Below the pieces are notes generated by a model, which was given only the letters and a program-made list of their open reading frames with translations, was not told the DNA's origin and searched no databases. From Candidatus Agathobaculum intestinipullorum (GTDB lineage Bacteria; Bacillota; Clostridia; Oscillospirales; Butyricicoccaceae): DNA of 64,000 bases. Both the position numbers and the translations under genes were made by a program. Location of the stretch: assembly GCA_019117485.1 (NCBI GenBank), contig DWZQ01000038.1, forward strand, positions 62,001 through 126,000, given 5' to 3'. Every line of letters begins with the position of its first letter. Position 1 is the stretch's first letter. This document shows, piece after piece, positions 13,304 through 17,181 of the stretch.

Positions 13304-14476
13304 ATGGCAAGAAAACCGGACAATAAATCGGTTCGGAATACGACCATCAAGGTGCGGCTCGACCCTACGCCCGCGCAGGCCGAACTGTTCGAAAAGACCT
13401 TTGGCTGCTGCCGCTACCTATGGAACCAGATGCTCGCGGATGAGGAACGATTTTACAACGAAACCAATGTGCACTTTATTCCGACGCCCGCCAAATACAA
13501 GGCAGGCGCGCCGTTTTTGAAAGAAGTCGACAGCGGGGCGCTGGCGACCGTACATCAAAACCTGCGCATGGCGTTCCAGCATTTTTTCGATAATCCATCC
13601 GCGTACCGGCACCCTACCTTTAAGACAAAGAAGCGGTCAAAAAATAGCTACACGGTTTATTGCCAATATTACGCCGCAGGCAAGGGTTCCAACATCTATC
13701 TGACCGAAAATGGCATCCGGTTGCCCAAGGTCGGGGTTGTCAAGGCCAGATTATACCGCAAGCCCCTGCACTGGTGGATGCTGAAAACCGCCACGGTGAC
13801 AAAAACGCCGTCCGGCAAGTATTTCTGCTCGCTGATGTTTGCGTATGCCGCTAAACCGGTCGCACCGGTGCAGCCGACGCCTAAAACCACGTTGGGGCTG
13901 AACTATTCCCTGTCGCACTTTTACGTCGACAGCAACGGACACACCCCTGACCCGCCGCACTGGCTGGCGCAGTCACAAAAGAAACTGTCCGCAATGCAGC
14001 AGAAACTATGTCGGATGCAGTGCGGTTCGCACAACTACGAACAGCAGTTACGAAAAATCCAGCGCTTACATGAGCATATCGCCAACCAACGAAAGGACTT
14101 TGTGCATAAGGAGAGCAGACGGATAGCCAACGTCTGGGATGCCGTGTGCGTGAAGGAAACCGATCTGGCGGCAATGGCGCGGACAATCAAGCTGGGTAAC
14201 GTGCTGGACGCTGGTTACGGAAAGTTTCGTGTCTGCTTGCAATACAAGCTGGAACAGCAGGGCAAGCCCTACATCGTGGTGGATAAATATTTTCCCTCGG
14301 CTAAGGCTTGCAACCGCTGCGGCGCGGTGCATGACGCGCTCGCGCCGGACGCCAAACGCTGGCGCTGTCCGGCCTGCGGCGCGGTGCATGACCGTGGCCG
14401 CAATGCCGCCGAGAACCTGCGCGATCAGGGCTTGGCGCAATATTACGGTACGGAGGGGCAGCGGATTTCCGCCTGA
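13304..14476 (+). CDS. nuclease-dead TnpB homologue (TldR-like RNA-guided regulator candidate)
   Basis: This 390-aa protein aligns along its whole length with TnpB of IS200/IS605 elements. The N-terminal region (10-180) is typical, and the RuvC core and four-cysteine zinc ribbon (C336, C339, C355, C358) are kept. The catalytic triad is lost: RuvC-I reads LGLNYS (N200, usually Asp), RuvC-II reads VCVKETDLAAM (K284 where the family has Glu of CIEDLN), and RuvC-III reads HDRGRNAA (G365 where DRDxNAA has Asp). DNA cleavage is therefore not expected, while guide RNA and DNA binding could persist. ATG 13304 follows AGGGGG by 11 bp; an in-frame GTG at 13292 is possible. No tnpA is nearby. The flagellin gene begins 398 bp downstream. 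Confidence 0.9.
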   Translation: MARKPDNKSVRNTTIKVRLDPTPAQAELFEKTFGCCRYLWNQMLADEERFYNETNVHFIPTPAKYKAGAPFLKEVDSGALATVHQNLRMAFQHFFDNPSAYRHPTFKTKKRSKNSYTVYCQYYAAGKGSNIYLTENGIRLPKVGVVKARLYRKPLHWWMLKTATVTKTPSGKYFCSLMFAYAAKPVAPVQPTPKTTLGLNYSLSHFYVDSNGHTPDPPHWLAQSQKKLSAMQQKLCRMQCGSHNYEQQLRKIQRLHEHIANQRKDFVHKESRRIANVWDAVCVKETDLAAMARTIKLGNVLDAGYGKFRVCLQYKLEQQGKPYIVVDKYFPSAKACNRCGAVHDALAPDAKRWRCPACGAVHDRGRNAAENLRDQGLAQYYGTEGQRISA

Positions 14477-14690
14477 CCCTTTGTGATACATCAATACCGG
14501 TGGGGACGCCGGTGTATGCCCATATGCGGAAGTTTGGGAACGTTGATTGGGACGGTGGAGCGCAATCCACCGCCGCAGTCAGCGTTTCCGGCAAAGCAGG
14601 TGGGAAAAAGAGACGGCAACCCGCAGTTTCGCACTGTGGCGCGCCTGAAGCCCGCAAGGCGGGCAGTCCACGCGTATTCAGCATAACAAA
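14477..14690 (+). ncRNA. candidate guide RNA (omegaRNA-like scaffold plus guide) of the dead TnpB
   Basis: TnpB guide RNAs are encoded at the 3' end of tnpB with the guide just outside the element end. Here the stop codon is followed by hairpins ACCGGT/GCCGGT (14496-14513), CGGTGGA/TCCACCG (14553-14572) and GCCCGC/GCGGGC (14650-14664), then CAGTCCAC. If the scaffold ends at about 14671, the guide would start GCGTATTCAGCATAAC (14672-14687). Scaffold end and guide length are inference. The RNA 5' end may lie inside the coding region. Confidence 0.45.
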
Positions 14691-14823
14691 ACGCACCCTT
14701 TTGAGGGAAAAAACTTCGTTTTCACCCGGCCGACGGGCCGGATGGGATATCATCCACGCGCCAAGCGGTTGCGGGCAGTTCGGCCGAATGTCCGGAACAG
14801 GGCGGCGATCCACGACCTGTGCT

Positions 14824-14868
14824 GGGGCAAGGGAATGCCCCGTCACACTAAACAGATTTTTTGGAGGA
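14824..14868 (+). promoter_or_regulatory. flagellin leader: CsrA-like hairpin and ribosome binding site
   Basis: A 6-bp hairpin GGGGCA/TGCCCC (14824-14841) presents GGGA in its loop, and a second GGA lies in the ribosome binding site GGAGG (14863-14867). In Bacillus, CsrA represses hag translation through just such a pair of sites. No csrA or fliW lies in this window. I found no sigma-28 type TAAA-N15-CCGATAT promoter in 14690-14823. Confidence 0.4.
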
Positions 14869-14874
14869 AATAGT

Positions 14875-17181
14875 ATGAGAATCCAGCATAACATTATGGC
14901 GATGAATGCCTACCGGAATTATTCGAACAATACTTCCGCTCTGTCCAAGAACCTTGAGAAGCTGTCTTCCGGCTACAAGATCAACCGTGCGGGCGACGAC
15001 GCGGCTGGCCTTGCAATTTCCGAGAAGATGCGCGCGCAGATCACCGGTCTGGACGTGGCGCAGAAGAATGCGAAGGACGGCATCTCCCTCGTGCAGACCG
15101 CTGAGGGTGCGCTGACCGAAGTGCACGATATGCTCAACCGTATGGTCGAGCTGGCAAACCAGTCCGCCAACGGCACCTATGACGAAACCGACCGCATCCA
15201 GCTGCAGAAGGAAATCACCCAGCTGCAGGATGAGATCGACCGCATCGCGGATTCCGCCAACTTCAACGGCATCAAGCTGCTCGACGGCTCGCTGTCCGAG
15301 GCGACGACTGTGAGCACCGCGACCCAGTTGATGGACATTGGGGTCACCCTTGCTGCCGGTAATGTCGACCATGGCCGTGTGGACGCGGAAGCTGCCGGTC
15401 ATGTGTTCAGTGTAGACAGCACTAACGGATCGCTGCAGAATGATGACGGTACCTTCGACGCCTTCGAGATCACCTTCAAGAACGCCAACGGCGAGACCAA
15501 GACAATTACTTTAGCCGAAGGTGCGATCGATGGCGTTACAGCGGGTGACGGCGATGCTTTGGCCGGTGCCTTGAGTGGGTCGACAGCGGGTCTGAGCCTT
15601 ACGGTTGTAAAGGGCGAACTTGAAGATCTGGCCGAGTTCCGGGAGCTGTTTAACATCACCAGTGTTGCCGATGCGGGCACTGGCAGTAATGAGGCGGGCA
15701 TTAAAATCCAGGCCAAGGATGCCGCCAGCGGTGCCGATCTGGTTTCCATTAAGTTCGCTACGGGTGCCGATCAGGATACCGCAATCGCTGCTCTGGCAAC
15801 GGCAGCCGAGGATGTCACTTCCACCAAGGCCGAGTCCGCAGGCTATATGATTGACCTGGACAATACCACGACCGATGGCACCGGTACTAATGTTGCGGCG
15901 GGCGATACGATCAAGATCGGCGACACGGTTTATGAATTTGTGGCCGCGTCGGGTGATAAGCCCACCACCTCCGGCGCAACTGCGGTGGTACTTGGTGCAG
16001 ATGATGCGGGTACTACGCAGAACCTGGTTGCCCAGCTCAAGAAGGACGGCTATGAAGTCAGCGTAAGTAACAACGACAAGTCCAAGCTGATTTTCACCGA
16101 CATGAGCAAGATCAGTGAAAAGCAGGGCGGCGCGCAGATTTCGGCCAGCTCGGACGATGTCCTGCTGACCAAGCAGGAGGCCGCCAAGCAGGTCACCGAG
16201 ATCACCATCGCTGGCACCACCAATTCCACTGCGCAGACCTTCACCTTCAACTATGTCGATGAAAACGGCAAGGCGCAGAGCAAGACGCTGAGCTATACGC
16301 CTGCTGCTGGTACGGCTGCGGGCAACGCGACCGCGATCTACAACGCCCTCAAGGACGATGCCGACCTGGTCAAGCTGTTTGACATTGCGGATGACGGCGC
16401 TGGTAAGATCACCATTACGGCGCGCGGCACGGGCGACGGCGCCGGTGCGTTCCAGGGCATTGTGCTCGACGACACGACGGCGAACCAGACCGTCACCCAG
16501 ACGGCGGGCGCCAACGAGGGTAAGGTGCTCGAACTCAAGGACGGCAACAACCTCAAGGCGGGCGACACCATCACGGTCAACGGCAAGACCTATGAGTTTA
16601 CTGACGACACCTCCAAGCCGGTCGGCGAGGGCAACATCGCCATCAGCCTTGGCGCGAATGCCAATGCAACGCTGGAGAACCTGTCTGACGCGCTGAGCAA
16701 GGACGGCGTGGTACATTCGCTCGATAAGACGGGTGCCAATTATAAGCTGGTCTTCAACGACAAGGACTACACGCCGGTTGATGGCGGCCTGACCCTTCAG
16801 ATCGGCGACACCAGCGAGGAGTTCAACCAGCTGACCGTTTCCGTCAAGGATTGCCATGCTGCGGCACTCGGCCTTGCCGGTCTGGATATCTCCACGCAGG
16901 ACGGCGCTGCCGCTGCGGTTGACGTCATCAAGGATGCGATCAACTACATCTCCGACGTTCGCGGTACGCTGGGCGCGACCCAGAACCGTCTGGATCATAC
17001 GATCAACAACCTGTCCGTCATGGAAGAGAACATCCAGGACGCTGAGTCCTCCATCCGCGACACCGATGTTGCCGACGAGATGATGGAGTACACCAAGAAC
17101 AACATCCTGATCCAGTCCGCGCAGGCGATGCTGGCGCAAGCCAATCAGGTGCCGCAGGGTGTACTGCAACTGCTCCAGTAA
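14875..17181 (+). CDS. flagellin, long variant
   Basis: This 768-aa protein is a flagellar filament subunit. Residues 1-140 form the conserved D0/D1 arm (MRIQHNIMAMNAYRNYSNNT, then KLSSGYKINRAGDDAAGLAI), and the last 100 residues form the returning arm ending in ANQVPQGVLQLLQ. About 520 residues between them are a hypervariable surface region rich in Ala, Thr, Asp and Gly with no cysteines. Typical Bacillus flagellin is about 300 residues and enteric FliC about 500, so this is large. The ATG at 14875 follows GGAGG by 7 bp; the frame is open further upstream but without flagellin sequence. Neighbouring glycosyltransferases suggest the filament is glycosylated. Confidence 0.93.
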   Translation: MRIQHNIMAMNAYRNYSNNTSALSKNLEKLSSGYKINRAGDDAAGLAISEKMRAQITGLDVAQKNAKDGISLVQTAEGALTEVHDMLNRMVELANQSANGTYDETDRIQLQKEITQLQDEIDRIADSANFNGIKLLDGSLSEATTVSTATQLMDIGVTLAAGNVDHGRVDAEAAGHVFSVDSTNGSLQNDDGTFDAFEITFKNANGETKTITLAEGAIDGVTAGDGDALAGALSGSTAGLSLTVVKGELEDLAEFRELFNITSVADAGTGSNEAGIKIQAKDAASGADLVSIKFATGADQDTAIAALATAAEDVTSTKAESAGYMIDLDNTTTDGTGTNVAAGDTIKIGDTVYEFVAASGDKPTTSGATAVVLGADDAGTTQNLVAQLKKDGYEVSVSNNDKSKLIFTDMSKISEKQGGAQISASSDDVLLTKQEAAKQVTEITIAGTTNSTAQTFTFNYVDENGKAQSKTLSYTPAAGTAAGNATAIYNALKDDADLVKLFDIADDGAGKITITARGTGDGAGAFQGIVLDDTTANQTVTQTAGANEGKVLELKDGNNLKAGDTITVNGKTYEFTDDTSKPVGEGNIAISLGANANATLENLSDALSKDGVVHSLDKTGANYKLVFNDKDYTPVDGGLTLQIGDTSEEFNQLTVSVKDCHAAALGLAGLDISTQDGAAAAVDVIKDAINYISDVRGTLGATQNRLDHTINNLSVMEENIQDAESSIRDTDVADEMMEYTKNNILIQSAQAMLAQANQVPQGVLQLLQ

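What the first reader, a model, noticed from the sequence alone, without database searches (positions are those of the whole stretch)
13304..17181. Nuclease-dead TnpB next to flagellin: a likely RNA-guided flagellin regulator (TldR-like) in a Clostridia-type genome
Seen: a full-length TnpB homologue has lost all three RuvC acidic residues (N200 for Asp, K284 for Glu, G365 for Asp), yet keeps an open frame, the four zinc-ribbon cysteines and the surrounding motifs. There is no tnpA. A flagellin gene follows in the same direction. Known: TnpB-like nuclease-dead repressors (TldRs) were reported to use guide RNAs to repress promoters, with one group in Enterobacteriaceae phages linked to flagellin switching. 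Inferred: this is an independent or distant case in Gram-positive gut bacteria, in which the protein may silence another flagellin gene while this one is expressed.
Basis: partly seen in the sequence, partly recalled or inferred. Interest (0 to 1): 0.95.

Follow-up and report, generated by a model that had tools for sequence, protein, structure and literature searches.

The report
Dead-TnpB flagellin switch, target missing
A likely gut bacterium carries a TnpB gene that has lost all three of its DNA-cutting residues, followed by a predicted guide RNA ending in 17 letters identical to the start of another flagellin gene in two species of the same genus, so it likely works as an RNA-guided off-switch for flagellin, a kind already reported in related bacteria, although that other gene is missing from this assembled genome.

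Summary
The 390-aa TnpB homologue (13304-14476) has N200/K284/G365 opposite ISDra2 TnpB's catalytic D/E/D. It is no decaying copy: 0 of its 120 nearest homologues has an intact triad, the dead rows form one clade (100/100), and dN/dS against the nearest locus is about 0.05. A flagellin gene follows on the same strand in 13 of 15 dead loci; of the other two, one contig ends first and one tldR is frameshifted. New here: a covarying guide-RNA scaffold (14496-14671) with a 17-nt guide (14672-14688). The guide equals the start of the presumed canonical flagellin in two congeners and mismatches the cassette's own flagellin at positions 2, 4 and 7, all synonymous. Across relatives it fits another flagellin better than the linked one in 8 of 10 loci, 2 ties, 0 reversed. 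A candidate invertible sigma-D promoter (13074-13225) faces away here. csrA-associated TldRs with hin invertons were published in 2026 (PMC13418256); this is a variant without csrA or hin beside it, with a start-codon guide and an unlinked Hin. In this MAG the matching flagellin is absent and the canonical slot is closed, so its present action is untested.

The parts
13007..13042 (.). perfect hairpin (15-bp arms) with A- and T-runs, possible bidirectional terminator between the inverton and the MATE gene
   Evidence: (I4) and sequence; role inferred; not listed by the terminator scan
13074..13101 (+). left inverted-repeat arm of the candidate inverton (AAAAGGTATACCTTTTGGAACA core)
   Evidence: I1, 86% complementary to the right arm; core found at only two places in the 2.09-Mb genome with up to 3 mismatches
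13137..13164 (-). sigma-D/FliA-like promoter TTAA-N16-CCGAAAA facing away from tldR (inferred OFF)
   Evidence: consensus recalled, imperfect match
13198..13225 (-). right inverted-repeat arm of the candidate inverton
13304..14476 (+). tldR: TnpB homologue with RuvC triad changed to N200/K284/G365
14496..14671 (+). predicted guide-RNA scaffold ending ...GGCGGGCAGTCCAC
   Evidence: fold z-score -5.44 (14490-14688); 20 of 32 consensus pairs with a compensatory change, 15 sequences; covariance model R1
14672..14688 (+). guide GCGTATTCAGCATAACA
   Evidence: also the guide in G015; identical to the flagellin start in G001 and G003
14719..14848 (+). conserved leader between guide and flagellin with two inverted repeats (14723-14744, 14818-14847)
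   Evidence: conserved across loci; inverted repeats; no Rfam match over it worth naming; function unknown
14875..17181 (+). cassette flagellin (768 aa); guide-like site at 14877-14893 with 3 mismatches
17384..19537 (+). GT2 glycosyltransferase, possible flagellin glycosylation; homologues follow flagellin in L045, L049, L043 and in TldR-free L132
   Evidence: role inferred

Best explanation
The locus is a TldR-type cassette, consisting of a TnpB-like protein without its three catalytic residues, a predicted guide RNA downstream, and a flagellin gene, and it likely serves to repress another flagellin gene, presumably the canonical one of its genus, by sitting on that gene's first six codons while the cassette's own flagellin is made. 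Shown by sequence: dead triad, conserved protein, covarying RNA, guide identical over 17 nt to a flagellin start in two congeners, three synonymous mismatches (guide positions 2, 4, 7) in the cassette's own flagellin. Inferred: a sigma-D promoter between inverted repeats flips, probably by the unlinked Hin on contig C16; when it faces right, tldR, guide RNA and flagellin are co-transcribed, TldR-gRNA binds the template strand at the other flagellin's start and blocks transcription, and the filament changes type. This would be an RNA-guided counterpart of Salmonella Hin/FljB/FljA switching. In this MAG the targeted gene is absent and the canonical slot is closed up, so here the cassette is either the sole flagellin source with an idle repressor, or the target was not assembled.
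For: Triad loss and alignment. 14 dead rows on one side of a branch, support 100/100, next to intact-triad TnpBs; 24 of 35 rows used. dN/dS 0.055 against L052 and 0.078 against L043, dS near saturation. Flagellin downstream, same strand, in 13 of 15 dead loci. RNA structure and covariation; R1 hits beside tldR in L181 and L163, which it was not built from. Exact 17-nt guide matches in 87 family genomes: two guides (G000, G015) and two flagellin starts (G001, G003); two more flagellin starts with 1 mismatch (G029, G082); about 0.02 exact matches expected in random sequence; reversed-pattern control 0. Unlinked flagellin fits better in 8 of 10, ties 2, reversed 0, sign test 0.004. L030 and L031: 380 of 380 flank bases identical, inner 102 of 102 identical only when inverted, promoter facing tldR in one and away in the other. 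A Hin homologue of the own genome (C16) is 69.6-74.5% identical to the Hins near tldR in L052, L043, L046 and L032 (8 of the 17 recombinase places compared), and the inverton core occurs only twice in the genome. Published RIP-seq and ChIP-seq on this kind of system (PMC13418256).
Against: No second flagellin and no exact target in the 95%-complete MAG; in G000:C42 the gene after the CheY-like gene follows directly where G017 carries a flagellin. L045's guide matches its own linked flagellin 16/16, and L044 ties 1:1. L046's best match (4 mismatches of 16) is no better than the best of 300 shuffles. Flagellin starts are constrained (MRIQHN), so a guide derived from any flagellin will resemble many; the 0.02 is for random sequence only. 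Loci are related, so the sign test overstates independence. Inversion was not seen at the window itself, and its promoter match is imperfect. No expression data.
Confidence: 0.78

Rival explanations
1. In this lineage the cassette has taken over: the canonical flagellin was deleted, and the repressor and guide persist without a target, as a recent relic.
For: Single flagellin; canonical slot closed inside a 157-kb contig; apart from the guide itself and the linked flagellin, the 5 sites with 3 mismatches to the guide are not preceded by AT.
Against: The guide region is identical over 18 nt in G015, whose TldR is 78% identical, and diverges after that; TldR frame and zinc ribbon intact. A MAG can lack a paralogue with near-identical ends.
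Confidence: 0.35
2. TldR mainly autoregulates the linked flagellin.
For: L045 guide is 16/16 to its own linked flagellin; the window's linked start has only 3 mismatches.
Against: Two of the window's three mismatches (2, 4) fall in nucleotides 1-6, which published TldR work names as the seed (PMC13418256, Fig. 1 legend). Linked fits worse in 8 of 10.
Confidence: 0.06
3. A decaying IS605 tnpB copy that happens to lie by a flagellin gene.
For: No tnpA seen next to it; triad lost; one relative (L033) is frameshifted.
Against: Dead clade conserved across genera with the same neighbour, RNA and guide logic; strong purifying selection; 0 of 120 nearest homologues with an intact triad.
Confidence: 0.02
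4. The RNA acts as an antisense on flagellin mRNA, without DNA binding.
For: The guide covers the translation start.
Against: If transcribed with tldR the guide has the sense of the flagellin mRNA, so it can pair with the DNA template strand but not with the mRNA (sequence).
Confidence: 0.02

Closest known systems
csrA-associated chromosomal TldRs of Oscillibacter/Flavonifractor (Walker et al. 2026, PMC13418256; outline, sections 11, 12, 33 and passages read)
   Same: Dead TnpB, guide RNA downstream, flagellin linkage, guides into flagellin ORFs, invertible FliA promoter; L031 and L032 (Lawsonibacter and Flavonifractor MAGs by record title) of this architecture group with the window
   Different: No csrA and no hin beside tldR here; guide starts at the G of ATG; candidate Hin is unlinked; target gene absent from the MAG
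Enterobacter prophage FliC-repressing TldR (same paper; original 2024 report recalled)
   Same: Dead TnpB represses the host flagellin and brings an alternative flagellin
   Different: Phage-borne and aimed at the fliC promoter region. In phage records the best listed relative of the window's protein is 40% identical, all 378 under 60%, 10 listed; one IMG/VR contig at 54%
Salmonella Hin/FljBA phase variation (recalled; Hin switching cited in PMC13418256)
   Same: Invertible promoter drives a flagellin plus a repressor of the other flagellin
   Different: Repressor would be RNA-guided instead of FljA
ISDra2 TnpB (8h1j, 8bf8)
   Different: D/E/D replaced

Membership tests
TldR (TnpB-like nuclease-dead repressor) | Full-length TnpB homology with RuvC catalytic residues lost | tested here: met
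TldR (TnpB-like nuclease-dead repressor) | Conserved as a gene, not a decaying transposon part | tested here: met
TldR (TnpB-like nuclease-dead repressor) | Guide RNA scaffold with guide at its 3' end | tested here: met
   in silico only:
TldR (TnpB-like nuclease-dead repressor) | Guide matches a host gene to be repressed | tested here: inconclusive
   matches in congeners and relatives; no target in the own MAG
TldR (TnpB-like nuclease-dead repressor) | RNA-guided DNA binding and repression without cleavage | not testable with these tools
   needs RIP-seq, ChIP-seq, reporter
csrA-associated TldR | csrA next to tldR | tested here: not met
   the single CsrA match of the genome is on contig C42, beside fliW by reading; none read in the ORFs around tldR
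csrA-associated TldR | Flagellin within 3 kb | tested here: met
   398 bp
csrA-associated TldR | Same clade as the published sequences | tested here: inconclusive
   groups with csrA- and hin-bearing Lawsonibacter and Flavonifractor loci; the seven published accessions were not compared
csrA-associated TldR | hin and invertible FliA promoter upstream | tested here: inconclusive
   inverted repeats and promoter-like site present; no recombinase of the 17 in the genome is on contig C6; a 69.6-74.5% Hin homologue is on C16
active IS200/IS605 TnpB | Intact D-E-D triad | tested here: not met

The most novel reading that the evidence does not exclude
One ancient domestication of TnpB gave Oscillospirales an RNA-guided counterpart of the Salmonella flagellin switch. 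Its sub-clades aim at three overlapping registers within the first 11 codons of flagellin, the cassette flagellin escapes mainly by synonymous recoding under the guide, and in the window's lineage the cassette, thrown by an unlinked Hin, has displaced the canonical flagellin altogether.
Probability: 0.4. Interest if true: 0.8.

Novelty: new variant of a known kind. Interest (0 to 1): 0.62.

Why it matters
It suggests a base-level rule for self versus other in a natural RNA-guided repressor: linked flagellins such as those of the window, G045 and G153 keep the protein start MRIQHN but change codons under the guide. It also extends the published csrA-linked system to a csrA-free form in the Agathobaculum group with a start-codon guide and a trans-acting invertase candidate, which a reporter assay can test directly.

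Tried and rejected
Rejected: decaying IS copy; antisense RNA; an intact triad hidden by misalignment (the fold comparison gives no residue pairs). Phage origin: one relative at 54% in viral contigs (1 of 46 pattern stretches); in phage records all 378 matches under 60%, best of the 10 listed 40%. A 24-letter target pattern gave 0 viral contigs. Rfam: nothing reached its gathering score in 12700-17700 (six sub-threshold matches). A sigma-D promoter between tldR and flagellin: none at up to 2 mismatches in 13 loci, one 3-mismatch hit each in L045 and L050 (simple consensus). Other guide RNAs in the own genome: none at E <= 0.001 with strict filters. Own-genome sites with 3 mismatches other than the linked flagellin: 5, none preceded by AT; reversed-pattern control gave 4 sites against 7. 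TAM: not settled; targets of the third register are preceded by CAT or CAC.

Left out of the linked/unlinked count: window, L052, L050, L032 (no second flagellin assembled or known), L047 (contig ends before flagellin), L033 (frameshifted tldR, no flagellin beside it), L181 (fragment only). Their linked flagellins, where known, have 3, 4, 5, 6 and 6 mismatches of 16 (window, L052, L050, L032, L181). Left out of the tree: 11 of 35 rows (one duplicate; the rest short, partial or unreadable). Order survey: 8 of 394 genomes at E <= 1e-80, of which only G000, G045, G085 and G153 hold dead or reduced flagellin-linked forms.
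Full report

The organism. G015, of the same genus, has its tldR on a 5,738-base contig that matches L029, titled uncultured Agathobaculum sp.; the gut habitat and the family name Butyricicoccaceae are recalled.

The family. In 87 genomes of the same family 18 have a TnpB match at E <= 1e-20. With order-level and named MAG loci added, every row with at least 51% identity is dead, and every row with 47% or less whose first two triad positions can be read has D and E there (third position D, N in four rows, unread in L138); L140 (the reduced protein below) and L028 could not be read. 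The 14 dead rows of the tree are one side of a branch with 100/100 support, next to four intact-triad TnpBs. Of 15 dead loci (those 14 and the frameshifted L033), 13 have a flagellin gene on the same strand within about 0.9 kb; L047's contig ends first, and L033 has no flagellin in the 6 kb held downstream. L181 and L163 add two linked cases.

The guide RNA. Between tldR and flagellin the loci share a scaffold. The window's folds far better than shuffles (z -5.44), and 20 of 32 consensus pairs carry compensatory changes over 15 sequences. A covariance model finds 11 strong hits in 8 of 87 genomes, all beside dead tldR genes (these are its own training loci), and two weak hits on the opposite strand of two of them. 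It finds two loci it was not built from, L181 and L163, and none of the nine intact-triad or DE-reading TnpB loci tried. The scaffold ends in a hairpin and, in the window, GTCCAC, followed by the guide.

Guide and target. The window guide, GCGTATTCAGCATAACA, occurs exactly four times in the 87 genomes: as guide in G000 and G015, and as the start of a flagellin gene in G001 and G003, congeners without a tldR match; with one mismatch it is the flagellin start in G029 and G082. In G001 and G003 that gene follows the genes I read as fliD, fliS and an MCP, which I take for the canonical slot (names recalled, not searched). The window's own flagellin has GAGAATCCAGCATAACA: three mismatches at guide positions 2, 4 and 7, all synonymous (MRIQHN). 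In the published Enterobacter TldR, mutations in nucleotides 1-6 derepress (PMC13418256, Fig. 1 legend). G045 is the mirror image: its guide GAGAATCCAACAT fits its unlinked flagellin for 13 nt, while its linked flagellin reads GCGTATTCAACAC. Over the ten loci with both kinds of flagellin in one genome the unlinked fits better in 8 (L043 2v6, L046 4v5, L048 2v5, L049 2v5, L051 1v5, L030 1v3, L031 1v3, L163 3v7 mismatches of 16), ties in 2 (L044 1v1; L045 0v0), and is never worse. The L046 match is within what shuffled guides reach. Guides fall into three overlapping registers of the first 11 flagellin codons. The second (L046, L047, L049) and third (L048, L050, L051, L030, L031, L032) registers each match a supported clade of the tree; the first is held by the other five rows, whose branching is less certain, and by L163 outside the tree.

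The promoter. Upstream, inverted repeats 13074-13101 and 13198-13225 enclose a sigma-D-like promoter that points away from tldR. Their core occurs at only these two places in the genome. Two MAG contigs, L030 and L031, have identical left flanks (380 of 380), nearly identical right flanks (53 of 54), and an inner 102-bp segment identical only after inversion (102 of 102, against 20 of 102 directly), so the promoter faces tldR in L030 and away in L031. That shows such an inversion in relatives, not at the window. By reading, serine recombinase genes lie upstream of tldR in L052, L043, L044, L046, L051, L032 and L031 (in L031 on the other strand), and tyrosine recombinases in L045 and L047 (Pfam confirmed L052, L046 and L047). 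The genome of the window has 17 recombinase places, none on its contig C6. Of the eight compared, one on C16 is 69.6-74.5% identical to the Hins of L052, L043, L046 and L032, and 52-55% to those of L044 and L051. No sigma-D promoter at up to 2 mismatches lies between tldR and flagellin in any of 13 loci, which fits co-transcription.

What does not fit. The MAG has one flagellin and no exact target. In G017 a flagellin lies between a CheY-like gene and a further gene; in the window's genome these two are adjacent inside one contig. The target may be lost, or a paralogue was not assembled. The guide region is identical over 18 nt with G015 and diverges after that, which speaks for recent selection on the guide.

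Known and new. The csrA-associated TldRs of PMC13418256 already establish, by RIP-seq and ChIP-seq, that such proteins use guide RNAs against alternative flagellin ORFs, with hin invertons upstream. csrA-like ORFs lie beside tldR in L043, L045, L046, L049, L050, L051 and L031 (Pfam) and by reading in L048, L032, L047, L163 and L181. None was read beside the window, L052 or L044, or in the short stretch held for L030; in the window's genome the only csrA is on another contig. The window is therefore a csrA-less, hin-less variant with a start-codon guide. Four searches of the PMC library listed two papers that concern TldR, PMC13418256 and PMC11481859 (the latter seen in the listing only). The names Agathobaculum and Butyricicoccus do not occur in the main text of PMC13418256. 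Subscription papers, preprints and its supplements were not seen, so earlier notice of this branch cannot be excluded.

Noticed in passing
L163 (G153:C30) 9862-10939, minus strand: A further reduced TldR of roughly 290 aa in another family: the RuvC-I motif and the zinc ribbon are missing, and the guide RNA lacks the long hairpin. Its guide still matches an unlinked flagellin start for 13 nt (linked 7 mismatches of 16), and a csrA-like ORF lies upstream.
   Followed up: partly
L030 616-717 and L031: Exact 102-bp promoter inversion between two near-identical flanks, sigma-D consensus TAAA-N16-CCGATAT in opposite orientations.
   Followed up: yes
L045, L047, L049 upstream of tldR: A possible second inverton type: tyrosine recombinase genes (L045, L047) and GGATAATAGTGTATTATCC-like inverted repeats (L047, L049) in place of Hin sites.
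   Followed up: partly
L048, L050, L051, L030, L031, L032, L181 guides: Guides of the third register share an A at position 10 that mismatches a G in every flagellin compared.
   Followed up: no
window 14719-14848: Conserved leader before flagellin; its second hairpin region recurs before flagellins in TldR-free G019 and at G046:C56; no Rfam family.
   Followed up: no
L033 6001-7394: Frameshifted tldR and a broken csrA-like ORF with an apparently intact guide RNA and guide: possible trans-acting guide RNA.
   Followed up: no
G000:C42 43989-48613: Canonical flagellin slot closed: MCP-like gene, a 161-aa ORF, CheY-like gene, then directly the gene that follows the flagellin block in G017.
   Followed up: yes
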